Below are positions 281 through 56,595 of a DNA stretch of 64,000 nt, piece by piece. The translations under genes and the position numbers were made by a program. Below the pieces are notes generated by a model that was given only the letters and a program-made list of their open reading frames with translations, did not search any database and was not told where the DNA came from. Every line of letters starts with the position of its first letter. Position 1 is the first letter of the stretch. Source of the stretch: Phylloscopus collybita. Its lineage: Eukaryota; Chordata; Aves; Passeriformes; Phylloscopidae. Where the stretch lies: contig JAJNNQ010000098.1 in NCBI GenBank assembly GCA_027886175.1, positions 372,001 to 436,000 on the forward strand, read 5' to 3'.

Positions 281-1337
281 ATGAACCTCATCCAAATTGT
301 CATCTTGTTAATGCTGAACAGTCTGGCAGCTGCATGGATCGTCCCTCAGCCACGTCAAAATGTCTGGGTGACCCTGGCACAGACACTTCAGCAGGAAAAC
401 ATATGTTTGTCTACTGCTTCGGCAAAGAATCCTATGTCCACCTGTCTGGTAGGAATTCCATTGCAGGCTGGAGAGTTTCCTGAGGGATTGGACACTCATA
501 TATCCAATGAAATTCCAAAGTCATTTCCCCTCCAACCATACAAAATCTGCAAAAAGGTGGTGTCATAACCTAAGCCACATTGCAGCTGACAACCCATCTC
601 ACTCAAACCCCAAAAGCCTCCCTAAGGGATTGTTCTTGATTTGTGGGGATCAAGCATGGGCAGGAATTCTGTCTCGGCTTTTAGGAGGGCCATGTACTGT
701 AGGGCGATTGTCCATATTGACACCCAACAAAACTCTAATTGGAGAATGGACTCACAAAAACAATTCGGCAAACAAAATTCATAAGAGAAGTGCTGACAAA
801 TTGGACTCAAATTGTAATTCAGACATTTTTCATTGGGCAAAGTCAAAAAGAGTTGCTGTGTCCCTGTTTCTTCCGTGGGTCTCAGCAGCCAAAGCTCTAG
901 GTGAATTGGGCCACCTAAAGTGCTGGGTAGTCAAACAGGCAAATTTGACATCAACCGCCATCAGTGCCCTCCTAGAAGATGAGGAAATCACCAGACAGGC
1001 CACGCCACAGAACCGCGCAGCGATCGACTTTCTCCTGTTACTTCATGGACATGAATGCCAGGAATTTGAAGGACTCTGTTGCATGAACCTGACGTCGAAA
1101 GCACCAAATGTCCACGCTTCCCTTCGGAGCATGAAAAACCTGATCAGACAAGTGAAGCAAGAATCTGAGGACTGGTTCAAAGAACTGTTCAAGGGCTGGG
1201 GATTCACAGGGTGGTGGATTTCTATAGTTAAAACAATTTTGTTATTCCTTGTTATCCTTTTCTTTGTAACCTTAGCATTCGGGATCCTACGCTGTTTAGT
1301 TTTCAAAGCTATCAATGGTCTCATACCTCCTACCTAA
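281..1337 (+). pseudogene. env: ERV-A env, SU-deleted and frameshifted
   Basis: The ATG at 281 begins a hydrophobic signal peptide followed by AAWIVPQPRQNVW, matching the start of the intact Env at 15339. This frame closes at 566-568; homology resumes in another frame from about 570 (the WCHNLSHI segment) and runs to TAA 1335-1337. About 100 residues of SU present in the intact relative are missing and a frameshift lies in roughly 480-600. The TM subunit is otherwise well kept: a basic HKR cleavage-like site, a cysteine-flanked internal hydrophobic segment, the LQNRAAID-type heptad region (here PQNRAAID), CQEFEGLCC (CX6CC) and a membrane anchor near the end. SU is not functional; TM alone keeps an open frame. 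Confidence 0.85.
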
Positions 1338-1460
1338 GAAGTCAACCACATAGAGTTGGCAAACCTAAGGCAAACTGATTTCCCCACCAATTGTAACTGG
1401 TGGGAAAGAGAAACTTCACATTATGTATAACCTAATGCTTTCCCTCTAACTTTCTTAAAC

Positions 1461-1474
1461 AAAAAAGGATGAGA
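1461..1474 (+). other. Polypurine tract of ERV-A
   Basis: The purine-rich run aaaaaaggatgaga immediately precedes the proposed LTR start TGTTTTATCC, the position of plus-strand DNA priming. Confidence 0.5.
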
Positions 1475-1751
1475 TGTTTTATCCCTCTGGGGAATGATTT
1501 ACCCCAAAAGGAACCCCAAAGCCTGTAACTATGTAAGTTTGACCCTACCTTCCCCCCTATCTCTGACCAATTGGCTCAGTGCCAGCTATCTGTCCTGGGA
1601 CAGAGGGTCTAGATAAACCCATGCTCTTCCTTGTTCAGTCTCTTTGCCCCTGGAACCCCTTCAAGAATAAAGCCTTGGAATATCCTGAGGTAAGGAGCCT
1701 CTTTTGGGTCTCTTTCCCTATCTTGAAGTCTTCCTTGCCCAAAGCCCCCCA
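1475..1751 (+). repeat. 3' LTR of ERV-A
   Basis: The LTR starts TGTTTTATCC after the polypurine run and ends near CCCCCCA at 1751. It contains AATAAA at about 1668 and a short pyrimidine-rich U5. No second copy exists in the window, so both boundaries are inferred from TG...CA and context; the true end could be some bases away. Confidence 0.55.
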
Positions 1752-2482
1752 GAATCTGAGCTAGCAGCCGGCCAGGAGGGCAGAGGGAGGGAATACTTTA
1801 AGAGATTTGTCCACAGAGAAAGAATGCAGGAGCACCACCATAGAATGCGCTGGAAAACTCTGGAGGAAGGAATCCAACAGCTGAGGGAAGTGACAGTACT
1901 GGAGGTACTTTTTGGGAGGAGCGGACAGCAGGATAATGACCCCGACAAAGTTAGATGCACAGGACAGATGTTGTGGAATCTGGCAAATCTAGTGCCATCT
2001 CAGTACACTACCTTCATTGCAACAATTAATGCTGAGGACAACAGAGAGACAGCGGGGTCTGTTGCCAATAAGCTTAGGAATTATGAGAGTATGATCAATG
2101 GCCCGATGCAGGCTCATATCTCTGCCGTGGTAAAAGAACTCAGAGGAAATGAGGGAGGAGATGAGGAAGATTAGTGCAGCACCTGTGCATGTTAACAGGC
2201 CCCAGAGTTGAAGCCCAACGACCCCCAGCCAGAGAGAGAGGGTACACCCCAAGAGCTGACTTGTGGTCTTATCTGCGTGACCATGGGGAAGACATGGGAG
2301 TGTGGGATGGGAAACCCACTTTTGTCCTGGCAGCACAGGTGCGTGAGCTTAAAGAAAAAAACAGTCACCAAGGGGGTTCCACTAAAATGAAAGTAACCTC
2401 AGCTTCCCATGACCAAGCTGCCAGTAGTCAGGATGCTGGAACCTCTTGTATGTATGCTCAGGGAGGGAATAACCAGTGCTAG
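1752..2482 (+). pseudogene. gag: ERV-L gag remnant
   Basis: An open stretch to TAG 2172-2174 encodes a charged helical region, then WNLANLVPSQYTTFIAT and a capsid-like segment ending in an acidic EGGDEED. It then shifts frame and continues at 2174-2482 to a TAG at 2480-2482. No start codon or matrix region is recognisable, so the N-terminus is lost. No zinc knuckle is seen, as expected for ERV-L Gag. The assignment rests partly on position directly before an ERV-L protease in the same frame as the second half. The TAG at 2480 could be an old readthrough stop or a simple nonsense mutation. Confidence 0.6.
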
Positions 2483-3007
2483 AGGGGCCCTGCCCCTAGC
2501 CAGGTAGAGGAAAGGGACAATCGGATCTATTGGACTGTGTGGATCCGATGGCCTGGCACATCCGACCCACAAAGATATACGGCTTTGGTTGACACTGGTG
2601 CCCAATGTACCCTGATGCCATCGCGGTATGTAGGAGCAGAACCCATTTCTATTTCTGGGGTGACAGGAGGGTCCCAGCAGCTGACTGTAGTGGAGGCCGA
2701 AGTGAGTTTAACTGGGAATGGGTGGCAGAAACACCCCATCGTGACTGGCCCAGAGGCCCCATGCATCCTTGGCATAGACTATCTCAGAAATGGATATTTC
2801 AGAGACCCAAAAGGATATTGTTGGGCTTTTGGAGTAGCTGCTGTAGAGACGGAAGACATCAGACAACTGAATACCTTGCCTGGTCTCTCAGACGATCCCT
2901 CTGCCGTGGAATTGCTAAGAGATGAAGAACAACAGGTACCAATTGCCACAGCAACAGTACACCATCGGCAATACTGCACTGACAGAGACTGTGACTCCTA
3001 TCCATGA
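2483..3007 (+). pseudogene. pro: ERV-L protease (aspartic)
   Basis: This is a retropepsin: the catalytic motif LVDTGAQCTLMP has Asp codon 2591-2593, and a C-terminal ILGIDYLR segment matches the second conserved hydrophobic-G-hydrophobic block. It lies in the frame of the second gag half, after the TAG at 2480. The frame closes at 3007 and overlaps the pol frame, which starts near 2922, so gag-pro to pol now needs a frame change. The protease triad is intact, but translation into it is blocked upstream. Confidence 0.8.
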
Positions 3008-5663
3008 GACGATTCGTAAACTGGAGAGCCAAGTGGTGGTCAGCAAGGCTCGTTCACCTCTCAACAGCCCTATATGGCCAGTGCATAAGCCCAGTGGAGA
3101 ATGGAGACTGACGGTGGATTACCGTGGCCTGAATGAAGTCATGCCACCACTGAGCGCTGCTGTGCCAGACATGTTGGAGCTCCAGTACGAGCTGGAGTCC
3201 AAGGCAGCAAAGTGGTACGCGACCATTGATATTGCCAATGCCTTCTTCTCCATTCCTTTGGCAGCAGAGTGCAGGCCCCAGTTTGCTTTCACCTGGAGGG
3301 CCGTGCAGTACACCTGGAACTGACTGCCCCAGGGGTGGAAGCACAGCCTCACCATCTGCCATGGACTGATCCAGGCTGCACTGGAAAAGGGTGAGGCTCC
3401 GGATCATCTACAGTACATTGATGACATCATTGTGTGGGGGAACACGGCAATGGAAGTCTTTGAGAAAGGAGAGAAGATCATCCAGATTCTCCTGGAAGCC
3501 GGTTTTGCCATCAAGAAGAGCAAAGTCAAGGGACCTGCCCGAGAGATCCAGTTCCTGGGAGTGAAGTGGCAAGATGGACAGCATCAGATTCCCACTGAGG
3601 TCATCAATAAGATCACCGCAATGTCTCCACCGACCAGCAAGAAGGAAACGCAAGCCTTCCTAGGCGCCATAGGCTTTTGGAGGATGCACATCCCTGAGTA
3701 CAGTCAGATTGTGAGCCCTCTCTACCTGGTTACCCGCAAAAAGAACGATTTCCACTGGGGCCCAGAACAGCAACACGCCTCTGCCCAGATCAAGCAAGAA
3801 ATTGCTCATGTGGTAGCCCTTGGCCCAGTCAGGACAGGACCAGAGGTGAAGAATGTGCTCTACTCTGCAGGCGGGAGCCATGGTCTGTCCTGGAGCCTGT
3901 GGCAGAAGGTGCCAGGTGAGACTCGAGGCCGGCCACTGGGATTCTGGAGCCGAAGCTACAGAGGGTCTGAAGCCAATTACACTCCCACAGAGAAGGAAAT
4001 CTTGGCCGCCTACGAAGGAGTTCAAGCTGCCTCAGAGGTGATTGGCACTGAAGCACAACTCCTACTGGCACCCCGACTACCGGTGCTGGGGTGGATGTTT
4101 AAAGGAAAGGTTCCCTCCACCCACCATGCCACCGATGCCACATGGAGCAAATGGATCGCCCTCATCACTCAGCGCGCCCGTATTGGTAACCCGAATCGCC
4201 CTGGGATTTTGGAAGTAATCACCAACTGGCCAGAAGCTGAGAACTTCAGTCTCACTGACGAAGAAGAACAAGAGCAAGTAACCCGGGCTGAAGAAGCTCC
4301 ACCATACAACCAACTGCCAGCAGAAGAAACACGCTACGCTCTTTTCACTGACGGTTCCTGTCGCATCATAGGGATGAAGTGGAAAGCAGCCATATGGAGC
4401 CCCACAAGACGAGTTGCACAAGCCACTGAAGGAGAAGATGGGTCAAGCCAGCTTGCGGAACTCAAAGCTGTTTAATTGGCCCTGGACGTTGCTGAAAGAG
4501 AGAAGTGGCCAAAGCTCTACCTCTACACTGATTCATGGATGGTAGCTAATGCTCTGTGGGGCTGGCTGGAAAGGTGGAAAAAGGCCAACTGGCAGCGTAG
4601 GGGTAAACCAATCTGGGCTGCTGATGAGTGGAAGGACATTGCCACCAGAGTAGGGAAACAACCTGTGAAAGTCCGCCATGTGGATGCCCATGTCCCCAAG
4701 AGTCGGGCTAATGAGGAGCACCGGAACAACGAGCAAGTAGATCAAGCCACAAGGATAGAGGTGTCCAAAATAGACTTGGATTGACAACACAAGGGAGAGT
4801 TGTTCCTAGCTCAGTGGGCCCATGATACCTCAGGTCATCAGGGCAAAGATGCCACCTATAAGTGGGCACGAGACCAAGGGGTGGGTCTAACTATGGACAG
4901 TACTTCACAGGTTATCCATGATTGTGAGATGTGTGCTGCCATCAAGCCAGCCAAGCGGGTCAAGCCCCTATGGTACGGTGGACAGTGGTCCAAATATAAG
5001 TATGGGGAGGCCTGGCAGATTGATTACATCACCCTGCCCCAAACCCACCAAGGCAAGCGCTACGTGCTGACCATGGTGGAAGCCACCACTGAGTGGCTGG
5101 AGACCTGCCCTGTGCCTCATGCCACTGCCCGGAACACCACCCTGGGTCTGGAAAAACAAGTCCTGTGGAGACATGGCAGCCCCGAGAGAATTGAGTCGGT
5201 CAACGGGACCCATTTCAAGAACAGCCTTATAAACACCTGGGCTAAAGAACACGGCATTGAATGGATATATCACATCCCTTACAATGCACCAGCTGCTGGG
5301 AAAGTTGAACAGTGCAACGGACTACTTAAGACCACCCTGCAGGCACTTGGCGGGTGGACCTTCAAAAACTGGGAAGTGAACTTAGCAAAGGCCACCTTTA
5401 TGGTCAACACCCGAGGCTCCATCAATCGAGCTGGTCCTGCCCAGTCTACCCCTTTGCACACAGTGGATGGAGATAAAGTCCCTGTGGTACACATGAGAGG
5501 TATCTTAGGAAAGACTGTTTGGGTTAACCCCACCTCAGGCAAAGGTGAACCCACCCATGGGATTGTTTTTGCTCAAGGACCTGGTTGCACTTGGTGGGTG
5601 ATGCAGAGAAATGGAAAAACCAGTTGTATACCACAGGAAAACCTAATCCTAAGTGAGAACTGA
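2922..5663 (+). pseudogene. pol: ERV-L pol: RT, RNase H and integrase with three in-frame stops
   Basis: One continuous frame runs from 2922 to TGA 5661-5663, interrupted by TGA 3321-3323, TAA 4473-4475 and TGA 4782-4784. RT shows the DYRGLN and LPQG blocks and YIDD at 3414-3425. RNase H has FTDGSC and, after the TAA, YTDSW and a VRHVDAH segment. Integrase has the HHCC finger (two His, then CEMC), the first catalytic Asp at 5022-5024 and Glu at 5307-5309, but the middle Asp is Val (GTC, 5199-5201) in ESVNGTHF. No ERV-L-type dUTPase follows integrase. The first stop falls just before LPQG, so RT is truncated early. A dead copy with good domain preservation. Confidence 0.9.
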
Positions 5664-7904: not shown

Positions 7905-7910
7905 AGTATC
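7905..7910 (+). repeat. 5' target-site duplication of ERV-B (AGTATC)
   Basis: AGTATC precedes the 5' LTR and recurs at 17401-17406 directly after the 3' LTR. A 6-bp duplication is usual for alpha- and betaretroviral integrases. Confidence 0.95.
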
Positions 7911-8310
7911 TGTGGCTGTGTAAAAAAAAATGTTTTGTAAGTTTTAGTTTTGAATGTAGTATAGTTTTTTTTATATTGTAAGTTTTAGTATAGTAGATAC
8001 CCTAAAAAGGCCCCTTTGTTTCAAGGTAAATGATAAAGTTGCTAAGACAACCAGAGTCTCTGTACAGAGTCTCTTCCCTATTGGTTCCCTTTCTGTTACA
8101 TCCCTGTTTCATGTATGATCTTCTCCCTTTGTCTATCATAAAACTTTTATCTTCAAGGTCCAAGAGCTTCGGCCCGTGGTTGGCAAAGCCCTGAGAGACC
8201 ACTCCCCAACTTATTTGGGATTTGTTAGTGTTTATGTAATCTAGCTGGCATGTATCGTTTTAATTGTTTTATTGGTTCAAACACATTATACCCACCCATA
8301 AGATTGTTTG

Positions 8311-8317
8311 TATAAAA
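8311..8317 (+). promoter_or_regulatory. TATA box of the ERV-B 5' LTR
   Basis: TATAAAA lies 82 bp upstream of AATAAA. The same element is at 17128-17134 in the 3' LTR. Confidence 0.8.
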
Positions 8318-8392
8318 TGCCCTGCAGCCCAGGTCCGGGGTCTTTGAAGAGGCACTGACCTGAGGCTGGGGGAACCTCTGACTCCCCCACCA

Positions 8393-8398
8393 AATAAA
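8393..8398 (+). terminator. Poly(A) signal in the ERV-B 5' LTR
   Basis: AATAAA is followed within about 30 bp by a T-rich stretch; the copy at 17210-17215 would end proviral transcripts. Confidence 0.75.
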
Positions 8399-8585
8399 GC
8401 CTCTTTTTCAAAGCTTCTCAAAGTCCCCTCTTTTACCACCGCCATGTCAGCGTGAGCTAAACTGCCTGCAAACCCAAAACCCCACCAACGAACTTTCCGG
8501 GGGCCCAGCCTGAATATCGAGCTGGGTCAAAAACCGAAAACGCACGGTCGCAGCACCCAGCGCCCTGGGGCTGAGACGCAACAGC

Positions 8586-8603
8586 TGGCGCCCGAACGTG
8601 GGG
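8586..8603 (+). other. Primer-binding site, Lys-tRNA type
   Basis: TGGCGCCCGAACGTGGGG starts two bases after the LTR. Its first 12 bases fit the Lys3-type site, while the last part (GTGGGG) fits the Lys1,2-type site, so it is a mixed Lys-type PBS. Assignment to tRNA-Lys is from general knowledge of retroviral PBSs. Confidence 0.8.
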
Positions 8604-8805
8604 CAGTGCAGCCGCAGTTAGCACGCTGAGTCGTGTGTTTGACACAGTGGCCCAGAGTGGACCCTGTGAGAAGTCTGCAGAGACTCTCAAATGCATGAGC
8701 CATCAGGGTGAAGCCCTGGTGGACGAAGAGAACAGCTCCTGCCCCAAAGGAGTCCTCTTCGGCGTGTGGTTGTATCAGCATCCTACCTCCTGCTGTCCTC
8801 CGGGT

Positions 8806-8816
8806 TTGGTGAGTAT
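8806..8816 (+). promoter_or_regulatory. Candidate major splice donor
   Basis: TTG|GTGAGTAT is a near-consensus donor (GT at 8809-8810) in the leader, 214 nt before the gag ATG. It would pair with the acceptor at 15315 to make subgenomic env mRNA. Confidence 0.65.
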
Positions 8817-9022
8817 ATTTTCCTCAGAGAAGGGGAGGGAAATACCCACAGTGCAGGCTTGAAAGAGCTGCACAATCTTAAGGTTGCATAACCCCTGAGA
8901 CAGGAAAGAAGAACGGCTGTAGGTCCTTCTTTGTGCAAAGGCACCCTTCTCAGGAAAAGAAAACCTGTGAGGAAGTGAAGGGGGGGAATCTGAGGAAGTG
9001 GTGGAACAATAACAACTAAAAA

Positions 9023-11575
9023 ATGGGAAACACTGAATCCATCACTCAGAAAGAGGTTTTTAAAAGTTTAATTGGGATTTTATTAGTTGCTAAAGTAAAG
9101 TATTCAAAAAAGGAATTGAAAAAATTTATTAAGTTTTTGTTTTTGCACTTTTCAAATGTTAATTCAAACCAAGTAAATTGTATTTTGTTTTGGGAACATG
9201 TTTTAAAAAAGTTACAAAAGCTAGCACAGTCAGGAGATGTTTTAGCTTCAAAATTTATGTTTTGGCCTTGGCAACTGATGTCTGCCTTGAAAGAAATTGA
9301 GAAAATGCAAGAAAAAAATAGTGCATCTTCGCAAAACTGTTTTTCAGCTTCTTCCCCTTTGTTTCCTTCTAATGCTTCTTTTTCCCCGCCCCCCCCAGCG
9401 TTTTCCCCTCCTCCCACCCCTCCCGCCAGACCCAAAGTTCCCAAATCCCCAAAAGACCCCTTTAAAATTTTTAAAAATGCAAAAACCATTCCCAAAACCG
9501 AAAACCTTGCCCCTTTAAGCCAAGGCAGTAATGGCCGAACTGCCGCAGCATCCCAAAACCGTTTAGTAAGTCTAAACGAAAAAAAAAAACCCCCTCTCTC
9601 TCCTTCGGTTCCCCGAGAAAACAAACCCAGAGTTCGTTTTTCGTTCGCGGAGAACGAGACTCCCTCAGCCCCTCCTGCCGTTGAAGACGGCTCCGGTGAC
9701 CCATGCATCCCCAATCCTGAAATTTTTCCCTTCCCAGAGAACAAAGAAAGCTGCCCTAAACATGGCGAAAGCCATGTGCTTGGAACAGATGCTCTTTGTT
9801 CTTGGTCTCCTCCCACTTCTTTTTCCCAGAGTGCACCGCTATCCCCGCCCTATTTCACTCCCTTTTCTTCCTTTTCTTTGTCCCCAAGCTTGCCCCCGCC
9901 CCTTTCCCCGCCCATTCAAAACCAAAAATGGATTTGGCCCTTCCCCTGGGCTCCAGTTCCAACAGTTCACCCGGCCGCGGCCCCCCCGGCCCCGGCGGCC
10001 ACCCCGGCCGCGCCCGCCGCCCCTGCCCCTGCCGCGCCGGCTGTCCCCGCCGTGCCGGCGGCTCCCGGCGCGCCGGCTCTCACGGCGCCGCCGGTTCCCG
10101 CCGCGCCGGCTGCCCCCGCCGCGCCGGCGGTACCCGCCGCGCCGGCTGTCCCCGCCGTGCCGGCGGCTCCCGGCGCGCCGGCTCTCACGGCGCCGCCGGT
10201 TCCCGCCGCGCCGGCTGCCCCCGCCGCGCCGGCGGTACCCGCCGCGCCGGCTGTCCCCGCCGTGCCGGCGGCTCCCGGCGCGCCGGCTGTCCCCGCCGCG
10301 CCGGGGGTCCCCGCGGCCCCCCCGGTTCCCGCGATCCCGGGAAGTGTTTTTCCTCATTTTTGCCGCAGGTCCGAGTTGACGTTGCAGCCTTCGCCGCCAT
10401 TGCTGAGAAGAGGGGCGGAGCCGGGAGCCGTCCCAGGCAGTCTCCTTCCCCCTCCCCGCAACGTCAGCGCGGCACCGCCCACAACCTGTTGCCATAGTAA
10501 CAGGCAAACACACTGTCAGCTTGAAGTTCCTGAAATCATAACAGCAGTTACCGAAGAAAAAGTCTCAGATAAAGCAAATCAAATGCAAAGCAAAGAAAAA
10601 CTGCCCACAATTACACCAGTTACCTATCGCAGAACTCGTGGGAACGGAAATACCTTTGCAAATTGGCGTGCTTTCCCTCAGTCACTCATTAAAGATTTAA
10701 TGAAAGCTTTAAAAGAATTTGGCCGTGAAAGCTCATATTTTGAAGGAATGTTGTATTCTTCCTTTGCTAGAATCACAGCTGTTCCCTCAGATTTAAAGCA
10801 GCTTTTCAAATGTTTGTCAAAAAAGGCTCAGTTTGAGCTTTGGGAAGGCACATGGGCAAACGTGTTGAAAGATGCACTCCCAGCTTTGTTAGAAAACCCA
10901 GACACCGCAACAGATAACGCAGGCAACCCAATCACCCTCAACCATTTAATAGGCGAGGGAGATTGGAAACTAGCCACTGACCAAGCAGATGTTATTCCAC
11001 AAAATGTTTTAGAATTTGTAACTGAGCTAGCTTGCAAAGCCTTTTTAAAAATGCAACCTACTGGATCTTTTCAATGTTATTTAGAAATTTTTCAGGAACC
11101 ACAAGAATCATATGTTGACTTTGTAGACCGCCTCTCGATGGCCGTCCAGCAGCAAGTTGTGGCAGAAGAAGCCCAAAAACAAGTGATTCAGCAGCTGGCA
11201 TTTTCCCATGCAAACGAAGAGTGCACAGCTGCCATCAACCTCATTCCAAGAGAACCAGGGACCATCCCTCAGCTCAGGCAAATGCTGCAAGCCGTGAGTG
11301 TCACAGTTCCAAGGAGCAAGAAACCAGCTCCCAAAGAAGCAAAAACACGCCCAAAAGTCACTGCTGCTGCTGCTGAAACTTCGAAAGCCCAAAAGACATC
11401 AGAGCCACAAAAGAAAAACACTTCTGCACAACCAGAACGCCCCTGTTTCCTCTGTGGTCAAAACAATCACTGGACAAACCGGTGTCCAATGAAAAAAGAA
11501 TTTGACAATTTTTTAAAAGAAAGGGGAAGTGGGGAGAATGAGAACACAGAAAACAACAAAGAGTCAAAAAACTGA
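9023..11575 (+). CDS. gag: ERV-B Gag polyprotein
   Basis: An 850-residue precursor of the virion core. ATG at 9023 is chosen because MGNTES gives an N-terminal Gly-2 myristoylation-type signal. Residues 1-95 are a helical, Lys-rich matrix domain. Residues about 110-430 are Pro-rich, with a PSAP late-domain motif at 214-217 and a Pro/Ala region (about 315-440) made largely of a 35-residue repeat. Capsid follows from about 530, with a major homology region at 691-704 (QEPQESYVDFVDRL). Nucleocapsid has a single CCHC knuckle (C808, C811, H816, C821). The TGA 11573-11575 directly follows a slippery heptamer. No disabling lesion is visible. The repeat region is far more GC-rich than the AT-rich codons around it. 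Confidence 0.95.
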   Translation: MGNTESITQKEVFKSLIGILLVAKVKYSKKELKKFIKFLFLHFSNVNSNQVNCILFWEHVLKKLQKLAQSGDVLASKFMFWPWQLMSALKEIEKMQEKNSASSQNCFSASSPLFPSNASFSPPPPAFSPPPTPPARPKVPKSPKDPFKIFKNAKTIPKTENLAPLSQGSNGRTAAASQNRLVSLNEKKKPPLSPSVPRENKPRVRFSFAENETPSAPPAVEDGSGDPCIPNPEIFPFPENKESCPKHGESHVLGTDALCSWSPPTSFSQSAPLSPPYFTPFSSFSLSPSLPPPLSPPIQNQKWIWPFPWAPVPTVHPAAAPPAPAATPAAPAAPAPAAPAVPAVPAAPGAPALTAPPVPAAPAAPAAPAVPAAPAVPAVPAAPGAPALTAPPVPAAPAAPAAPAVPAAPAVPAVPAAPGAPAVPAAPGVPAAPPVPAIPGSVFPHFCRRSELTLQPSPPLLRRGAEPGAVPGSLLPPPRNVSAAPPTTCCHSNRQTHCQLEVPEIITAVTEEKVSDKANQMQSKEKLPTITPVTYRRTRGNGNTFANWRAFPQSLIKDLMKALKEFGRESSYFEGMLYSSFARITAVPSDLKQLFKCLSKKAQFELWEGTWANVLKDALPALLENPDTATDNAGNPITLNHLIGEGDWKLATDQADVIPQNVLEFVTELACKAFLKMQPTGSFQCYLEIFQEPQESYVDFVDRLSMAVQQQVVAEEAQKQVIQQLAFSHANEECTAAINLIPREPGTIPQLRQMLQAVSVTVPRSKKPAPKEAKTRPKVTAAAAETSKAQKTSEPQKKNTSAQPERPCFLCGQNNHWTNRCPMKKEFDNFLKERGSGENENTENNKESKN
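10041..10289 (+). repeat. 105-bp tandem repeat coding the Pro/Ala region of Gag
   Basis: The block ctgtccccgccgtgccggcg recurs at 10041, 10146 and 10251, exact period 105 bp (35 codons); two full units and a partial third. It is almost all G and C. The period is a multiple of three, so unit gain or loss keeps Gag open. Confidence 0.9.
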
Positions 11576-14500
11576 ATGAAGAGCGAGGGACAGCCCATCG
11601 TGTTGAACCAAATCGGGCTGATGTAAACACCAAGAAAAGAAAAAAGTCATTTAAATCAAATTTGTCTTTCTTTTCACAGGATTTGACAAAACCAGACAAA
11701 CCGAGGCACATAATTTTGCCTGAACCAACAGGATCCTTGACAACGACAGACAGGTATGAGCCTTTTAGGCTCAAGCTGGCTGAGCCTCTTCACCTGCGGG
11801 ACAGTCAATGGCACACAGCCGTGGTCTCAAAAGAACCAGGCACGTGGCATTTGATAGGTACCAAATGGGTTGTTGTCGGAGACTGTAAGTACACTCCCAA
11901 AGACATAAAGATTGCTCCTGGGATTGTAAGAACAGACCCAGGGCGATTTGTGGTGTGGTTGGGCAGTGATAACCCACCCACATTTTTACCAAAAGGGCAA
12001 ATCATCGCCCAAGCCATTCCATCTCTCCAAGAGCTTGCAGTGAGAACAGATTTAGAGAACACTGCCACAGAAGATGACAAAGAAGAAAGCGACACAGACA
12101 CCACAGTCGCTGTGATAAAAAAGATAAGCTCTGACAGGCCAAAAGATTACTGTAAACTCTCCATGGGTGGCGAATCCAGACTCCTTGAAGGAGCCTGGGA
12201 CACAGCTGCAGATGTCACAATTGTACCAGAAAAGGTGTGGCCGTCACACTGGGAATTACAAGATTATGTCAAACATGTAAATGGCATTGGGGGTTTGCAA
12301 TTGGCCAAGCAGTCAAAGAAAGCAATCACATTTGAGGGACCAGATGGGCAATTGGCAACTTTACGCCCTTTTGTGTTGGATTTTGACGAACCCCTGTGGG
12401 GAAGAGATTTAATGTCCCAATGGGGAGTCACAATCAACATTCCTGACCCTTCAAAGGTTTTTCAAGTTGCGGTCACTGAGGAGCGCCCTATCCAAAAACT
12501 GAATTGGCTGACAGATGAACCAGTTTGGGTAGAGCAGTGGCCGCTTTCTAAGCACAAATTAAAGGCGCTCAATGAATTGGTAGAAGAGCAATTGAAAAAA
12601 GGCCACATTGAAGAGACCACTTCACCGTGGAACTCTCCAGTGTTTGTCATTCAAAAAGCAGACAAGACCAGATGGAGACTACTTCACGATCTTCGAAAAA
12701 TTAACGAGGTAGTTGAGGACATGGGATCACTGCAACCAGGGATGCCTTCCCCAACTATGCTCCCTGAAAATTGGAATTTAACTGTGATTGACATCAAAGA
12801 TTGTTTTTTTCACATTCCTCTTCACCCCGATGATGCACCACGCTTTGCTTTTTCCGTGCCCACCCTCAATCAAGACGCACCCCGGAAGCGGTACCAGTGG
12901 AGAGTCTTACCGCAAGGCCTAAAAGTGTCTCCCATGCTCTGCCAACGGTACGTTTCCTCCCTGCTCGAACCCGTGCGTGCAGCAGTGCCCCAAGCGATCA
13001 TTTATCATTACATCGATGATGTTTTGATTTCCGCGCCAACAGACGACCTGTTGAAACATGCACTCGACCTCACAGTGTCTTCACTAGTTGATGCAGGTTT
13101 TGAGCTGCAAGAGTCCAAAATTCAACAAATGCCGCCCTGGAAATATTTAGGGCTTGAAATCGGAAAAAGAACCATTGTTCCTCAAAAATTGAAAATTAAA
13201 ACCCAAATTCAGACCCTTGCAGATGTTCATCAACTGTGTGGAACTTTAAACTGGGTGAGGCCGTGGCTCGGTCTTTCTACTGAAGATCTAGCCCCCCTTT
13301 TTGATTTGTTAAAAGGGGGAGAGGGGCTCAGTTCCCCCAGGACCCTCACCCCAGAAGCAAAAATTGCGCTTGAAAACATTCAGCACGCAATGTCCACCAG
13401 ACAGGCCAACAGGTGCAAGCCTGACCTGCCTTTTCGATTTATCATTCTGGGAAAGCTGCCACATCTTCATGGAATGATTTTTCAATGGGACAAAAAAACC
13501 ATCCAGAAATCAAAAAAAGTCCAAGACAAGGAAGATCCCCTCTCAATTATAGAGTGGGTCTTTCTGAGTCACCACAGGTCCAAACGAATGACAAAACCAC
13601 AAGAATTGATAGCCGATTTGATTCGAAAAGCCAGAATTCGCCTTCGGGAACTGGCTGGCTGTGACTTTGAGTTCATTCACATGCCAATCAAATTACAATC
13701 AGGCCAAATTACAAAAGCCATGCTGGAGCATTTGCTCCAAGAGAACGAAGCACTGCAATTTGCTCTAGATAGCTACCCCGGCCAAATTTCAGTTCATCGG
13801 CCTGCCCACAAACTGTTCAATGCCGATGTTTCATTTCAATTAGAGCTAGAAAGTATCCAGAGCAAAGTGCCTCTTGACGCTCTAACTGTTTTTACAGACG
13901 CATCAGGAAAGTCACACAAGTCAGTCATGACTTGGCAAGACCCCCTTTCCCAACAGTGGGAATCAGATGTTGCAGAGGTAGAAGGATCGCCTCAAGTTGC
14001 TGAGTTAGCTGCAGTCGTTAGAGCGTTTGAGAAGTTCTCTGGACCTTTCAATTTAGTAACCGATTCAAGTTATGTTGCAGGGATAGTTTCTAGAGCAGAA
14101 CATTCTGTGCTGCAAGAAGTTTCCAACATCGCTCTTTTTCAGTTGCTTTCTAAGCTTGTGAAACTGATTTCTCACAGAGAACACCCCTTTTACGTGATGC
14201 ACACCAGATCACACACAGAGCTCCCAGGATCCATTGCAGAAGGAAACAGGAGAGCTGATGCTCTCGCTGCTCCTGTTGAAGTGACCCCACTGCCAAATCG
14301 TTTTGAGCAGGCAAGAATTAGTCACCAACTCCATCACCAAAACGCACCAGGTTTGGTCCGGCAGTTTAACTTAACCCGTGACCAAGCCAAAGCGATTGTA
14401 AATAGCTGTTCACAATGTCACAAAAGTGCCATTCCATCCATGCCCACAGGCGTGAATCCCCGTGGTTTGTCCAGCTGTGAAGTGTGGCAATCAGACGTCA

Positions 14501-15297
14501 CGCACTTTGCCCCCTTTGGAAAGCAGAAGTACGTGCATGTCTCTGTCGACACGTTCTCGGGAGCTGTTTTTGCTTCTGCCCACACAGGAGAGAAAGCTGG
14601 AGATGCTATCAAGCATTTTATCCAAGCTTTCGCTGTTTTAGGCATCCCAAAGTCTTTGAAAACTGACAACGGACCAGCTTACAAATCCAAAGAATTCCAC
14701 AGTTTTTTACAGCAATGGGGAGTGGAACACAAAACTGGGATTCCCCACTCTCCGACAGGTCAAGCAATTGTAGAAAGGACTCATCAGAATCTCAAAAGAG
14801 TCCTCAGTCAGCAACAACCAGTTCTCAAAATTGAACCACCATCTGTAAGATTGGCCCGTGCTTTGTTCACTTTAAATTTTCTTAATTGCTCTTTTGAGTC
14901 CATGAAGCCGCCGGTGAAAAGGCATTTTCAAGGGAGCTCACAGTTAGAGCCCCATGAAAGGCCAAAAGTTCTTGTCAAAGATCCAGAAACTTTGAAAATA
15001 CAGGGTCCTCACGATTTGGTCACCTGGGGGCGTGGGTACGCCTGCGTCTCCACTCCCACTGGCTTGCGGTGGATCCCCTCCCGATGCGTGAGACCCTATG
15101 TCCCAAAACCTTCAGAAACAAAATTGCCCCAGGCCACTGTGGCCTCTTGGAGAAGGAAAAAAAAGGAAAAAGAAGAGAAAAATTCAGAGGCAAAGCCTCC
15201 TTGCCCAGTTACTCTTCCCTCCTGGATGTTTTGGCAAGAGAAAGAAGCAGAAGAGCTGCTTCCTCCAGATGATTGTGTTCAGTATTTGTTTAACTGA
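11542..15297 (+). CDS. pol: ERV-B pro-pol: dUTPase-like, protease, RT, RNase H, integrase
   Basis: The -1 frame is open from 11542 to TGA 15295-15297 and would be entered by frameshifting. Residues counted from TTG 11662: about 30-125 resemble a retroviral dUTPase (PGIV...KGQIIAQ) but lack clear catalytic motifs. The protease motif WDTAADVTIVP has D180 and the DTA triad where DTG is usual; GRDL marks its C-terminal end. RT has LPQG 416-419 and YIDD 450-453. RNase H has D746, E781, D801 and D866. Integrase has the HX3H...CX2C finger, then D945, D1002 and E1038 (D,D-35-E), and a WGRGY/RWIP C-terminal domain. The frame ends 42 nt before the env ATG. Apart from the protease triad, all catalytic residues are present. 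Confidence 0.92.
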   Translation, partial: EHRKQQRVKKLNEERGTAHRVEPNRADVNTKKRKKSFKSNLSFFSQDLTKPDKPRHIILPEPTGSLTTTDRYEPFRLKLAEPLHLRDSQWHTAVVSKEPGTWHLIGTKWVVVGDCKYTPKDIKIAPGIVRTDPGRFVVWLGSDNPPTFLPKGQIIAQAIPSLQELAVRTDLENTATEDDKEESDTDTTVAVIKKISSDRPKDYCKLSMGGESRLLEGAWDTAADVTIVPEKVWPSHWELQDYVKHVNGIGGLQLAKQSKKAITFEGPDGQLATLRPFVLDFDEPLWGRDLMSQWGVTINIPDPSKVFQVAVTEERPIQKLNWLTDEPVWVEQWPLSKHKLKALNELVEEQLKKGHIEETTSPWNSPVFVIQKADKTRWRLLHDLRKINEVVEDMGSLQPGMPSPTMLPENWNLTVIDIKDCFFHIPLHPDDAPRFAFSVPTLNQDAPRKRYQWRVLPQGLKVSPMLCQRYVSSLLEPVRAAVPQAIIYHYIDDVLISAPTDDLLKHALDLTVSSLVDAGFELQESKIQQMPPWKYLGLEIGKRTIVPQKLKIKTQIQTLADVHQLCGTLNWVRPWLGLSTEDLAPLFDLLKGGEGLSSPRTLTPEAKIALENIQHAMSTRQANRCKPDLPFRFIILGKLPHLHGMIFQWDKKTIQKSKKVQDKEDPLSIIEWVFLSHHRSKRMTKPQELIADLIRKARIRLRELAGCDFEFIHMPIKLQSGQITKAMLEHLLQENEALQFALDSYPGQISVHRPAHKLFNADVSFQLELESIQSKVPLDALTVFTDASGKSHKSVMTWQDPLSQQWESDVAEVEGSPQVAELAAVVRAFEKFSGPFNLVTDSSYVAGIVSRAEHSVLQEVSNIALFQLLSKLVKLISHREHPFYVMHTRSHTELPGSIAEGNRRADALAAPVEVTPLPNRFEQARISHQLHHQNAPGLVRQFNLTRDQAKAIVNSCSQCHKSAIPSMPTGVNPRGLSSCEVWQSDVTHFAPFGKQKYVHVSVDTFSGAVFASAHTGEKAGDAIKHFIQAFAVLGIPKSLKTDNGPAYKSKEFHSFLQQWGVEHKTGIPHSPTGQAIVERTHQNLKRVLSQQQPVLKIEPPSVRLARALFTLNFLNCSFESMKPPVKRHFQGSSQLEPHERPKVLVKDPETLKIQGPHDLVTWGRGYACVSTPTGLRWIPSRCVRPYVPKPSETKLPQATVASWRRKKKEKEEKNSEAKPPCPVTLPSWMFWQEKEAEELLPPDDCVQYLFN
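11566..11572 (+). promoter_or_regulatory. -1 ribosomal frameshift slippery site A AAA AAC
   Basis: In the gag frame the codons read TCA-AAA-AAC-TGA, so the heptamer A AAA AAC is in the correct phase and touches the stop. A -1 slip enters the pro-pol frame, which is open from 11542. The inverted pair CAGCCC (11591-11596)/GGGCTG (11615-11620) downstream is a possible stimulatory stem. The same site is found in ERV-C at 56589-56595. Confidence 0.85.
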
Positions 15298-15316
15298 ATT
15301 TTCTTTTGAGTTACAG
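15297..15316 (+). promoter_or_regulatory. Candidate env splice acceptor of ERV-B
   Basis: The tract aattttcttttgagttacag ends at AG 15314-15315, just after the pol stop and 24 nt before the env ATG. Proviruses A and C have the same arrangement. Confidence 0.65.
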
Positions 15317-15338
15317 AACCACAAGTCTGGTGTTCAAC

Positions 15339-16703
15339 ATGAAAACTCGCAGCACGACAGTGTTTACCCTTGCAGTGCTGCTCAGTTTGCCATCAATAAC
15401 CATCCCCTGGATCGTTCCACAGCCAAAAACCAATGTGTGGAAAACCCTCGCACGGAGTCTAGGCCAAGATCACATTTGCCTAGCCTCAGCAACAGCCCAA
15501 GATCCCATATCTTCCTGCCTGGTGGGAATCCCTGTGAAAGAAGAAGAGTATCCGTACTCACTTCTCCAATTGCAACAGAAATTTAATCGAAAACCCAGCA
15601 CAGTTCATCATTTTGAAGAAATAGGTGAACCCCCGTCAACCTTTGTCTTGAATCCCCTTGCTTTTTGGGAGGAGTGGTCACAAACTCTTTCGCGTGTTCA
15701 CCAAGAGCCCCAAGAATTAGAACTCCTTGGGTCCTCTAAAGCTCCTTTTTGTGTTCAATTTCTGTATACTCCTTCCAAAGAACAAGAGAAGTCATTTTAC
15801 AATTTGCTGCAAGTCAAAAGTTCATATATGGCAGCAAATTGGTGCACAAGAATTGTGCATGTTAAAGTTTCCTTTACTGACAACACCTTTCCCCGTTCCC
15901 TTCCTAAAGGTTTTTTTTTCATTTGTGGTGACAGAGCATTCACAGGCATTCCTGCTCGTCTGATTGGAGGCCCATGCACATTAGGCAAGTTAAGCCTGTT
16001 CACCCCAAACATGACTCAAATTTTCAATTGGCACAAAAGAAATTCCTCTTTTCAAATTCAGAAAAGAGACCTAACAAGTCTCGACCCTGACTGTAATTCA
16101 GAAATTATTCATTGGTCCAGAGCAAAAACTACAGCCTTGACAGTTTTTTTACCATGGGTTTCAATTGCAAAATCTATGGGAGAATTGAGCCGTCTCGAAT
16201 GTTGGGTGGCCAAGCAAGCAAATTTGACAACACAAGCTATAAGTGACCTCCTTTCGGACGACGAGGTCACCAGGCAGGCAACCCTCCAAAACAGAGCTGC
16301 CATTGACTACCTACTTTTGTTAAATCAGCATTCATGCGAAGAGTTTGAAGGACTGTGTTGTTTCAATCTATCGTCCAAAGCAGAAGACGTCAAAAAATCT
16401 GTCCACCAGCTGCGAGAAATGGTCAACTCCATCAAAAAAGAAACAGGAGACTGGTTTGACAACATCTTTTCAGGTGTTGGACTTTCTAGCATTGCCAGCT
16501 CGTGGATCAAAACAGGACTGTTAGTTTTGTTTATTGTTTTAGTTGTAGCCATTGCTTTTAGTTTAGTGAAAAATTTAATTATGCATGCAATTTTTCCCAC
16601 TTCCACCCCTTCTGTGCACTCAGTAGTGCCAGCCATCGAATTTCCACCAGATGATGCCTCAAGCAGTGAAGACAGCGCAGAAATTTACACTCCAGAACAG
16701 TAA
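15339..16703 (+). CDS. env: ERV-B envelope glycoprotein (SU-TM)
   Basis: A 454-residue precursor. ATG 15339 is preferred over the upstream TTG because it starts a signal peptide (residues about 1-24, hydrophobic LAVLLSLP core) and is the first ATG after the acceptor. SU is short (about 220 residues). A basic QKR site at 241-243 is the likely SU/TM cleavage; it is weaker than a standard RXKR furin site. TM has a hydrophobic segment lying internally between two cysteines (fusion-peptide candidate), an LQNRAAID helix, CX6CC at C333/C340/C341, a membrane span about 393-411 and an acidic Ser-rich tail. These TM features resemble alpharetroviruses. Several NXS/T sites occur. No frameshift or stop is seen. 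Confidence 0.93.
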   Translation: MKTRSTTVFTLAVLLSLPSITIPWIVPQPKTNVWKTLARSLGQDHICLASATAQDPISSCLVGIPVKEEEYPYSLLQLQQKFNRKPSTVHHFEEIGEPPSTFVLNPLAFWEEWSQTLSRVHQEPQELELLGSSKAPFCVQFLYTPSKEQEKSFYNLLQVKSSYMAANWCTRIVHVKVSFTDNTFPRSLPKGFFFICGDRAFTGIPARLIGGPCTLGKLSLFTPNMTQIFNWHKRNSSFQIQKRDLTSLDPDCNSEIIHWSRAKTTALTVFLPWVSIAKSMGELSRLECWVAKQANLTTQAISDLLSDDEVTRQATLQNRAAIDYLLLLNQHSCEEFEGLCCFNLSSKAEDVKKSVHQLREMVNSIKKETGDWFDNIFSGVGLSSIASSWIKTGLLVLFIVLVVAIAFSLVKNLIMHAIFPTSTPSVHSVVPAIEFPPDDASSSEDSAEIYTPEQ

Positions 16704-16727
16704 CAAAATAAAAAAAAAAGGGGGAAG
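16704..16727 (+). other. Polypurine tract of ERV-B
   Basis: The A-rich run ending AAAGGGGGAAG abuts the 3' LTR. Confidence 0.85.
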
Positions 16728-17400
16728 TGTGGCTGTGTAAAAAAAAATGTTTTGTAAGTTTTAGTTTTGAATGTAGTATAGTTTTTTTTATATTGTAAGT
16801 TTTAGTATAGTAGATACCCTAAAAAGGCCCCTTTGTTTCAAGGTAAATGATAAAGTTGCTAAGACAACCAGAGTCTCTGTACAGAGTCTCTTCCCTATTG
16901 GTTCCCTTTCTGTTACATCCCTGTTTCATGTATGATCTTCTCCCTTTGTCTATCATAAAACTTTTATCTTCAAGGTCCAAGAGCTTCGGCCCGTGGTTGG
17001 CAAAGCCCTGAGAGACCACTCCCCAACTTATTTGGGATTTGTTAGTGTTTATGTAATCTAGCTGGCATGTATCGTTTTAATTGTTTTATTGGTTCAAACA
17101 CATTATACCCACCCATAAGATTGTTTGTATAAAATGCCCTGCAGCCCAGGTCCGGGGTCTTTGAAGAGGCACTGACCTGAGGCTGGGGGAACCTCTGACT
17201 CCCCCACCAAATAAAGCCTCTTTTTCAAAGCTTCTCAAAGTCCCCTCTTTTACCACCGCCATGTCAGCGTGAGCTAAACTGCCTGCAAACCCAAAACCCC
17301 ACCAACGAACTTTCCGGGGGCCCAGCCTGAATATCGAGCTGGGTCAAAAACCGAAAACGCACGGTCGCAGCACCCAGCGCCCTGGGGCTGAGACGCAACA
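16728..17400 (+). repeat. 3' LTR of ERV-B
   Basis: 673 bp, same termini, TATA box (17128) and AATAAA (17210) as the 5' LTR, with no difference seen by eye. The TSD AGTATC follows at 17401-17406. Confidence 0.95.
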
Positions 17401-17406
17401 AGTATC

Positions 17407-40147: not shown

Positions 40148-41583
40148 TTATGTCATCATGCGTCGCCAAGCTGCAGGCTTGTTCCAGTTTCCCTGGACTG
40201 GGCGACCTTTAGAATCATACTTAGAATGACGTTGACTAGCAAAATGACGACCTTTATGGCATCGTGGACATAAATCAAGAATCTTAGGCTTAGCTCTTTT
40301 TTGAGTAAGGCAGGTTTTTTTTAAGTGGCCTGATTTTTCACAGTTGTAGCAAACTGTTGAAGTGTTAGAAGCACCCTTGGCTGCTGCAAAAGCTGCAGCC
40401 ATAGCTTCATACTGATGTTCTATAGTTCCAATACACTTGCATGCTTCAACTATTTTGACAAGGCTTGGTTCTTGGTTTGGCAGGGACTTAAGGAGTTTTT
40501 TACAGTCAGCATTTGCATTTTCAACAGCAAGTTTTAAAAGCAAGATTTCACGGGCATCTGCATTATTAATTTGGCATTCTAGTGCTTGCTTAAGGCAGTC
40601 AATGAAATGCATATAAGGCTCTTGGGGCCCCTGGATAATAGTTGTAAATGCTTTCAGGGGTGTTTTTGTATTAGAGACCTTAAGAATGGCTTGGCGAGCT
40701 GCATCCTGAGTTCTATCAAGGGCTTCTCTTGGGCAATCTCGCACCTGGGTAGCTGGGTCGGAGTACGGACTCATCTTCATGAGCTGCCTGATAGTAAGGG
40801 CAGCCAGGGCTTGATTTGCATGACTTATGTAAGTTAAAAGAAGGTTTTGCAAGCCTTTCTTCTATTCTTTCTTCCACAGGCTGTATTGGATGGGACATAG
40901 CAACAAGCGAGCGAGGGTCTATAAATCATACGGAGTCATAATGTGGGCAGCAAACACAGAATCTAACAAGCTGATAAAATGCAGTGAACTGATACCATGC
41001 TCTGTAGCCGGCTGCCGTAACTTTTTGATTTTCGAAAAAGACAGCTGTTCTTAGTGGGCAGCCCGTTTTCTGATTTCAGAATACATTATTGGTGCTACAA
41101 TTCTTTCAGCAACTTTAAGTTCCCCCTCTCTTAATGCTTGTTGTTTTAAGCAGACTCAGTTGTCATGAGGGTCAGGAGGATATAAATTAGGCTCCTTGTT
41201 AGAGTCAATAGGTCCAGGATCAAAGGGATCCTCCTTTGGACTATCACTGTCTTCACCATAGCTAGCAGCGAAAGCCTTTACAGAGTCCAGGGGGGCCCCC
41301 TTCCTTTTCTTTTTAGAACACGGAGCTGAAACTGCAGGTGTTTTCTGTGGCAGAGGGGGGGCGGTGAGGGAGACAAACACTGGGAAGCAGTTTCATTGGT
41401 ATTTAGACAATTCTGAGACTCCTCCGAAGTGGAGGAGCTAGCAGCAGCTTGGTTTTTAGCAGCAGTTTTTTCAAGTGTTAAGGTAGTCTGAGAATCTGCT
41501 GTTGCAGGACAGGGTTTTCTTGCATTTTGGGAGTTTTCATGAGCTTTTAAAGCTTCAAAGGTCACTCTCCAGGAAGGTAGCAT
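40148..41583 (-). pseudogene. gag: ERV-D gag, frameshifted
   Basis: Upstream pieces (41583-41278 and 41380-41156) form a Ser/Pro-rich matrix-linker region. The best-kept piece (40852-40148) holds capsid and nucleocapsid: a major homology region QGPQEPYMHFIDCLKQAL, a CCHC knuckle CYNCEKSGHLKKTC and a second knuckle CPRCHKGRHF whose last cysteine is replaced. Two knuckles and an adjacent dUTPase point to a betaretrovirus-like element. At least two frame changes lie between 41380 and 40852. The ERV-B type Gag has only one knuckle, so the two lineages are separate. Confidence 0.75.
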
Positions 41584-52896: not shown

Positions 52897-53478
52897 TGTT
52901 GGGGAGGATGAAGCAGGAAGGCCCTGCAGAGATGATTTATTGATGAAAGATTCTAAGAGTGTAAAACCTGCAAGAGAGATAGAGTTAAAAGCAAGATTTG
53001 AGCTATAGAATGCTAAGCAGGAAGATAGTGATTAGGTTAGCTGAGGACCAGGACCCTGGTGATTGAGCAATACTCCTCCCCAGACAAAGGGATGCAAAAG
53101 GGGGTTGGGCCCTGCCATGTAGCAGGAAAAAAGTGGTTTTCCAGGTTTTTAGTATGTAGAGTAGTATGGTAATGTAGTAGTTCTCATAGGCTGTATGTAG
53201 ATTCTGTAGGTTTTGTATCCTGTACTGGTTGGTTGGTGCTAACCAGAATATTCAGCATGGAAAGGGATAAAATGTAATGTAACAGGAAACTCACTCTCTT
53301 GGATACTCTCCCTCTCTCGGATTCTCCCTTCTGCTGCTCCCTTCCCTTCCTTTTGCTGACCACGCTTCAGCCGGTGCTGGTCAGGTTGCCTGTTCCCACG
53401 ACCAATAAACACGTGTCCTAAGAGCACCCCAGTCTCCAGAAGTCTCTCATCGGACCCCATTGCAGCTCATTTCCTATA
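52897..53478 (+). repeat. Solo LTR nested in ERV-C integrase; ends TG...ATA
   Basis: 582 bp, TGTTGGGGAGG...TTCCTATA, with the perfect 6-bp duplication TCCCTG (52891-52896, 53479-53484). AATAAA near 53404 lies about 70 bases before the end. Removing it rejoins the integrase frame. The 3' terminus ATA rather than CA is unusual; compare 57748-58244. Confidence 0.85.
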
Positions 53479-56400: not shown

Positions 56401-56588
56401 TGGTGTTGAGTTCCCAGAGGAAACTCTTGTCAATTCTGGTGATGGACTCCTGGAAGGAGCCTCTCTCAGGTCCTGTTCATTAAAAGAGACAAGAATGTTA
56501 TTATCTTTTTTCATTCTCCCTCTCCCCCTCCTGGCTCGGGCCACCCAATTTTTGTCTTCACGCTGGGTAGACCCACACTTGCCCTCTA

Positions 56589-56595
56589 GTTTTTT
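56589..56595 (-). promoter_or_regulatory. -1 slippery site A AAA AAC of ERV-C
   Basis: Same heptamer, phase and immediate contact with the gag stop (here TAG) as in ERV-B, showing the frameshift signal is a conserved lineage feature. Confidence 0.85.

What the first reader, a model, noticed from the sequence alone, without database searches (positions are those of the whole stretch)
7911..17400. Complete, very young endogenous retrovirus with all reading frames open
Seen: two 673-bp LTRs with no visible difference, perfect 6-bp duplication, PBS, splice sites, slippery site, polypurine tract and uninterrupted gag, pro-pol and env. Inference: insertion is very recent, possibly polymorphic, and the lineage may still be active.
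Basis: partly seen in the sequence, partly recalled or inferred. Interest (0 to 1): 0.9.

Follow-up and report, generated by a model that had tools for sequence, protein, structure and literature searches.

The report
Young songbird retrovirus, unusual protease
The window holds a very young, complete copy of a retrovirus family that has recently multiplied in this songbird's genome, and the copies read carry an unusual alanine in the protease active site where related viruses mostly have glycine.

Summary
In detail: window 7911-17400 is a complete provirus with identical 673-bp LTRs, a 6-bp target duplication and open gag, pro-pol and env. The recency inference holds, but this copy is one of many. 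In the same 1.25-Gb bird genome, 12 of 18 proviruses compared (window included) have identical LTR pairs. There are 66 LTR-PBS junctions: 37 lead to a provirus of this family, 27 to a short derivative (23 loci), 2 are unassigned. Young full-length ERVs are expected in passerines, so that alone is ordinary.

Two things are not ordinary. First, the protease active site reads Asp-Thr-Ala, not the usual Asp-Thr/Ser-Gly. All 25 copies read have it; 65 of 67 exact WDT[A/G]ADV sites genome-wide have Ala. A babbler relative (Cyanoderma ruficeps) shares it; 76 of 101 readable public relatives have DTG. Changes in pro within the family are skewed to synonymous, so the enzyme is probably functional. Second, a 5.06-kb derivative with the same LTRs, no pol, and a 645-codon chimeric truncated Gag frame lies at 23 loci.

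Insertion polymorphism was not testable: the empty site found (85% identical) is an old paralogue or gametologue, not an allele.

The parts
7905..7910 (.). 5' copy of the 6-bp target-site duplication AGTATC
7911..8583 (+). 5' LTR, 673 bp, TG...CA; TATAAA-like and AATAAA words inside
8586..8603 (+). primer binding site TGGCGCCCGAACGTGGGG, tRNA-Lys-like with one extra base
8808..8813 (+). consensus-like splice donor (untested)
9023..11575 (+). gag, 850 aa: N-terminal MGNTES, PSAP, P/A-rich array, p24 domains, one CCHC knuckle
10023..10314 (+). tandem array coding the Pro/Ala-rich stretch of Gag; differs in length and type between copies
11566..11572 (+). slippery heptamer A_AAA_AAC, -1, stop codon follows at once
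11542..15297 (+). pro-pol open frame, 1251 codons: protease, RT (YIDD), RNase H, integrase
12199..12207 (+). protease active-site codons Asp-Thr-Ala in place of Asp-Thr-Gly
15339..16703 (+). env, 454 aa: avian gp85-like SU, TM with CX6CC and cysteine-flanked internal hydrophobic (fusion-peptide-like) stretch
16710..16727 (+). polypurine tract
16728..17400 (+). 3' LTR, identical to the 5' LTR
17401..17406 (.). 3' copy of the target-site duplication AGTATC

Best explanation
The feature is a recent germline insertion of a class II (ERVK, betaretrovirus-like) retrovirus lineage that has multiplied very recently in this songbird. Shown: complete anatomy, distinct insertion sites with 6-bp duplications, identical LTR pairs, mixed gag and LTR types among copies. 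Inferred: copies arose by reverse transcription of RNAs packaged together (mosaic patterns), by re-infection or intracellular movement. The lineage uses a retropepsin whose catalytic triplet is Asp-Thr-Ala. I think this enzyme works, because the change is common to the copies read and the pro coding sequence shows an excess of synonymous changes. The same machinery probably also moves a 5.06-kb derivative that lacks pol.
For: LTR identity, TSD and open frames. 18 proviruses compared: 12 identical LTR pairs, 14 perfect 6-bp TSDs. env 454 codons open in 17 of 18, start codon kept in 16 of these. DTA in 25 of 25 copies read, in 65 of 67 exact genome sites, and in P0121 of Cyanoderma ruficeps. In 23 copies against the window: 14 synonymous and 9 non-synonymous changes, null 6.6 and 14.8, P 0.0005; protease part 7 and 4, null 3.0 and 7.1, P 0.01. 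Retropepsin, flap GIGG and GRDLM words kept. Derivative at 23 loci.
Against: No RNA, protein, second individual or enzyme assay was available. The synonymous skew is as strong in the spacer before the protease (7 and 4, null 3.2 and 7.2, P 0.018), so it is not special to the protease, and the 23 changes come mostly from four more divergent copies (L112, L114, L119, L127). The protease-to-RT divergence ratio of the DTA pair is 2.08, at the upper end of the 1.45-2.15 that 14 other relatives give against the window, so a slight relaxation is not excluded (from the counts). gag is broken within the piece read in 7 of 18 copies; in 5 of these an indel in or beside a homopolymer run is the likely cause and may be an assembly error. 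The 18 were chosen by similarity to the window's LTR, so they lean young. Another ERV could supply protease.
Confidence: 0.7

Rival explanations
1. The DTA protease is dead or nearly so; the family spread because another ERV with a normal protease cut its Gag in trans.
For: Other ERV families in the same genome have DTG proteases. Movement in trans fits this family: a derivative without pol lies at 23 loci, and two copies share a gag nonsense change.
Against: Synonymous excess in the DTA protease part; the change is shared with a babbler relative that differs by about 10% in RT; flap and GRDLM words kept; the DTG proteases read in this genome are only about 34-47% identical.
Confidence: 0.25
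2. An ordinary young ERVK provirus; the alanine is a neutral, known-type variant with no consequence.
For: Young full-length ERVs are common in passerines (PMC8310711, PMC11009239; passages read). One human ERVK element with DTAAD is tabulated as potentially active (PMC6058741, passages read).
Against: Asp-Thr/Ser-Gly is described as the conserved triplet of retroviral proteases (PMC8148205, passages read); here a whole recently amplified lineage lacks it, not one stray copy.
Confidence: 0.3
3. Identical LTRs are an assembly artefact (collapsed or copied LTR).
For: The window's LTR is identical to both LTRs of another copy on C58.
Against: Distinct flanks and TSDs, different gag arrays, small private differences between copies.
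Confidence: 0.03

Closest known systems
Passerine ERVK (class II, betaretrovirus-like) endogenous retroviruses, e.g. pro-pol P0121 of Cyanoderma ruficeps and P0122 of Zosterops borbonicus
   Same: Pol domains; 82% identity over residues 150-420 to P0121; P0121 shares the DTA triplet
   Different: P0122 and 76 of 101 readable relatives have DTG. The gag array type and the derivative were not looked for outside this genome
HERV-K and MMTV (Betaretrovirus-like)
   Same: p24 best matches HERV-K capsids (59.0 bits; Rous sarcoma capsid 34.5). RT best matches chain 7sr6, which I recall as HERV-K RT (421.1 bits, next HIV-2 RT 203.0). Integrase best matches 7usf, recalled as MMTV (250.3 bits, against 129.6 for the entry named RSV integrase)
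   Different: Single gag to pro-pol shift, Env of the avian alpharetrovirus kind, no dUTPase found by Pfam
Avian leukosis-sarcoma viruses (Alpharetrovirus)
   Same: SU hit to avian gp85; TM best hit is ASLV fusion TM
   Different: p24, integrase and protease score clearly lower against Rous sarcoma entries than against betaretrovirus-like ones (no avian RT was in the lists seen); protease lies in the pol frame, not the gag frame
Non-autonomous LTR elements carried by an autonomous relative (chicken ART-CH, barley BARE-2; recalled, no call)
   Same: Shared LTRs, spread in trans
   Different: Here a 645-codon chimeric truncated Gag frame runs to the same end in 5 of 6 units read

Membership tests
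Class II / ERVK endogenous retrovirus | capsid, RT, protease and integrase closest to betaretrovirus-like members | tested here: met
   p24: HERV-K 59.0 bits, Rous sarcoma capsid 34.5; RT: 7sr6 (recalled HERV-K) 421.1; integrase: 7usf (recalled MMTV) 250.3, RSV integrase 129.6; protease: 3sqf (recalled M-PMV) 56.5, RSV protease 24.2. No tree was built
Class II / ERVK endogenous retrovirus | 6-bp target-site duplication | tested here: met
   14 of 18 perfect 6-bp, window included; the other four match in part
Class II / ERVK endogenous retrovirus | tRNA-Lys primer binding site | tested here: inconclusive
   Of 18 copies 14 have the Lys-like form with one extra base, 1 the exact Lys form, 3 other forms. 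Five genome places carry the Lys-type end, ARAGORN calls tRNA-Lys (CTT) at two of them; no place matched the pattern with the extra base
Betaretrovirus (strict) | pro in its own frame, two frameshifts, with dUTPase | tested here: not met
   One -1 shift; pro and pol share a frame; no dUTPase by Pfam at E up to 5 in the first 208 residues
Alpharetrovirus | gag and pro in one frame, shift between pro and pol | tested here: not met
   Protease lies downstream of the gag stop in the pol frame
Avian gamma-type Env | CX6CC motif and internal fusion peptide flanked by cysteines (definition in PMC3758190) | tested here: met
   CEEFEGLCC at env 333; two cysteines 36 residues apart flank the hydrophobic stretch after KR; passages read
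Retropepsin (A2 / RVP) | Retropepsin domain by sequence | tested here: met
   PF00077 E 4.6e-12; the window's domain alone hits solved retroviral proteases, best E 3.8e-14
Retropepsin (A2 / RVP) | Asp-Thr/Ser-Gly catalytic triplet | tested here: not met
   Asp-Thr-Ala
Retropepsin (A2 / RVP) | Proteolytic activity as a dimer | not testable with these tools
   needs an assay

The most novel reading that the evidence does not exclude
A retroviral lineage has replaced the glycine of the catalytic Asp-Thr-Gly triplet by alanine, kept that protease under purifying selection across divergence between two songbird ERVs, and still amplified to tens of copies: a working natural exception to a motif held to be conserved.
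Probability: 0.55. Interest if true: 0.68.

Novelty: new variant of a known kind. Interest (0 to 1): 0.5.

Why it matters
A young complete ERV in a songbird is expected. A whole amplifying lineage with an Asp-Thr-Ala protease is not: it would show how far the catalytic triplet of retroviral proteases can drift in nature, and it can be tested with a small purified domain. The family also offers, in one genome, a young autonomous element, gag-broken copies, a pol-less derivative with a truncated Gag frame, and solo LTRs, so rules of movement in trans can be studied by copy counting.

Tried and rejected
An accessory gene in the 162-codon frame 15098-15586 that overlaps pol and env: rejected. Leaving out copy H, most changes among copies alter it while several are silent in env, and one copy truncates it.

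A shared gag frameshift as proof of master copies: weakened. The insertions sit at an A8-C5 run, with C inserted in two copies and A in two. Only the G-to-A stop at 9930, shared by N and Q, remains.

Selection on the derivative's 645-codon frame: weak. Ten pairwise pN/pS ratios lie between 0.33 and 0.69, but with the mutation types held fixed synonymous changes are 30 against 23.1 expected, P 0.053; stops 0 against 2.1, P 0.11.

A tRNA that matches the odd PBS: none with the pattern used.

Exact junction of the empty site: a 20-base junction word with up to 2 mismatches gave six places, none at the C4 locus, and six in the reversed control, so only the contiguous 85% alignment stands.

Rfam at gathering thresholds found nothing in the window.

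The comparison with alpharetroviruses was redone by domain.

Literature: ten searches. Searches (1 of 1 listed; 10 of 50; 15 of 119) were aimed at the protease motif; none of the titles and abstract openings seen is about a DTA retroviral protease lineage. I read passages of PMC10536682, PMC3758190, PMC6058741, PMC8310711, PMC8148205 and PMC11009239, no whole paper. This does not show that it is unpublished.

Full report
What is there. Window 7911-17400 is a complete provirus. The LTRs (7911-8583, 16728-17400) are identical over 673 bases. AGTATC flanks both ends. A tRNA-Lys-like PBS starts at 8586 and a polypurine tract ends at 16727. gag is 850 codons (9023-11575). A_AAA_AAC at 11566-11572 abuts its stop. 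pro-pol is one frame of 1251 codons, 11542-15297. env runs from 15339 to 16703, 454 codons. Pfam assigns p24, protease, RT, thumb, RNase H, integrase and avian gp85.

Kind. By domain, against solved structures: p24 scores 59.0 bits to HERV-K and 34.5 to Rous sarcoma capsid. RT scores 421.1 to 7sr6, which I recall as HERV-K RT, and 203.0 to the next, HIV-2 RT. Integrase scores 250.3 to 7usf, recalled as MMTV, and 129.6 to the entry named RSV integrase. Protease scores 56.5 to 3sqf, recalled as M-PMV, and 24.2 to RSV protease. No tree was built. Env matches the ASLV fusion subunit best, with CX6CC and a hydrophobic stretch between two cysteines 36 residues apart. [quoted passage not shown] Strict alpharetrovirus and betaretrovirus frame layouts are both not met. 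An Env search listed 120 of 280 relatives; those with names are passerine in the rows seen, so the combination is probably common there.

Not one copy but a family. The genome has 1.247 Gb in 517 contigs and no name. The best pro-pol relative is from the babbler Cyanoderma ruficeps (82%; taxonomy), so the host is probably a passerine near the babblers; this is inference. An LTR search scored 40 of 1038 candidates. Of these 40 rows, 2 are the window, 28 make 14 further pairs, 3 are single ends whose partners I fetched, 5 are singles, and 2 were not followed. Of 18 proviruses so compared, 12 have identical LTR pairs. The others hold 8 substitutions and 1 indel in all; 14 of 18 have a perfect 6-bp TSD. 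Of the 5 singles, 3 are solo LTRs with TSD and 2 follow a polypurine tract. The LTR end 30-mer occurs 293 times with up to 2 mismatches, 0 in the reversed control. LTR-PBS junctions number 66, control 0: 27 lead to the derivative, 37 to a DTA protease, 2 to neither. If each non-derivative junction stands for two LTRs (78) and the derivatives for 50 (22 loci with two, the array with six), at most about 165 of the 293 are left as solo LTRs or fragments.

Age. With 0 of 673 differences the 95% bound is about 0.7-1.1 million years at 2 to 3.3e-9 substitutions per site per year (rates recalled). Pooled over the 18 pairs, 8 in 12,114 sites gives about 0.1-0.17 million years, but the sample leans young.

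State of the frames in the 18. env is open for 454 codons in 17; one of those has lost its ATG. gag is open in 11: 4 to the natural stop and 7 to the end of the 3000-base piece. It is broken in 7, in 5 probably by indels in or next to homopolymers. One copy has lost 12948-15315 of pol. The Pro/Ala-rich stretch of Gag is a tandem array of two types and several lengths among copies. Columns of gag show mixed groupings of copies, which fits recombination between packaged RNAs.

The protease. The active site reads EGAWDTAADVTIV. 25 of 25 copies read (window, L102, L105-L127) have DTA. They were picked by RT or LTR likeness to the window. Eight other ERV loci of the genome (L001-L008) have DTG, as do L128 and L129. 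Exact WDT[A/G]ADV codons occur 67 times, 65 of them Ala and so 2 Gly; reversed-pattern controls gave 1 and 0. Three searches of public proteins gave 243 sequences (of 280, 251 and 74 matches the best 120, 120 and 74 are listed). 124 match the protease and 101 are readable at the triplet: 76 DTG, 1 DTA (P0121, Cyanoderma ruficeps), 24 other; most of those 24 are swallow copies that look degenerate. Window and P0121 differ at 21 of 104 residues in protease and 31 of 320 in RT, a ratio of 2.08. The 14 other relatives compared give 1.45 to 2.15, most near 1.7 (counts; P0131 among them has DMG). So the DTA pair is at the upper end: no clear relaxation, but a slight one is not excluded. Within the family 23 unique changes in pro are 14 synonymous and 9 not (null 6.6, 14.8 and 1.5 stops; P 0.0005). 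In the protease part they are 7 and 4 (null 3.0, 7.1 and 0.8; P 0.01); in the spacer before it also 7 and 4 (P 0.018). The null keeps base, CpG context and new base but treats changes as independent. The best reading is a working enzyme with the smallest possible side chain in place of glycine. PMC6058741 (passages read) says the glycine must be small and lists one human DTAAD element as potentially active. PMC8148205 (passages read) names Asp-Thr/Ser-Gly as conserved.

The derivative. Six loci read in whole or part share the LTR (about 96-99%) and nearly the same joints: 9417/9807, about 15130-15135, and 16262/16376. All five single elements have 6-bp TSDs, with 0-3 LTR differences. A frame starting at the gag ATG is 645, 645, 645, 644, 621 and 510 codons. 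Part of it is only about 72% identical to the window's gag, and that part matches 13 further loci at 85-94%, so the element is probably a recombinant with another family. 27 matches at 95% or more lie at 23 loci, from 40 scored of 149 candidates. On C2 it forms a tandem array with six identical LTRs and five inner units of two lengths. Its constraint test is weak.

Empty site. 350+350 bases of joined host flank match C4:18270849-18271586 in one piece at 85%; the junction word itself was not found there with up to 2 mismatches. This is a related locus without the provirus, perhaps a Z gametologue of a W-linked C100. It says nothing about alleles.

Setting in the literature. [quoted passage not shown] Youth and intactness are therefore ordinary here; the DTA lineage is what deserves follow-up.

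Noticed in passing
C2:28398905-28422302 (L095, L103, L104, L096): Tandem array of the pol-less derivative: six identical LTRs, five inner units of 3668 or 3719 bp; outer flanks lack a perfect TSD.
   Followed up: partly
PBS 8586-8603 and copies: At least four PBS forms among the 18 copies (14, 1, 1 and 2), one being the exact tRNA-Lys complement; no tRNA end found for the commonest form.
   Followed up: partly
11658-11679: A strong acceptor-like polypyrimidine-CAG inside the 5' part of pro.
   Followed up: no
11575-12100: The spacer before the protease of P0121 holds the word LPKGQIIAQ, which recalls a decayed dUTPase; Pfam finds none in the window.
   Followed up: no
453-5660, 40148-40861, 47759-48988, 53421-56607: Further ERV pieces in the window: env with avian gp85, RT and integrase of another kind, gag and pol of class II kind.
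   Followed up: partly
C59, C52: 20 and 8 of the 65 DTA sites lie on these two contigs; C59 is also dense in RT hits and may be W-derived.
   Followed up: no
whole genome: 28 of 65 DTA sites have no matching LTR-PBS junction within 5.5 kb, so the DTA change may be older than this LTR type.
   Followed up: no
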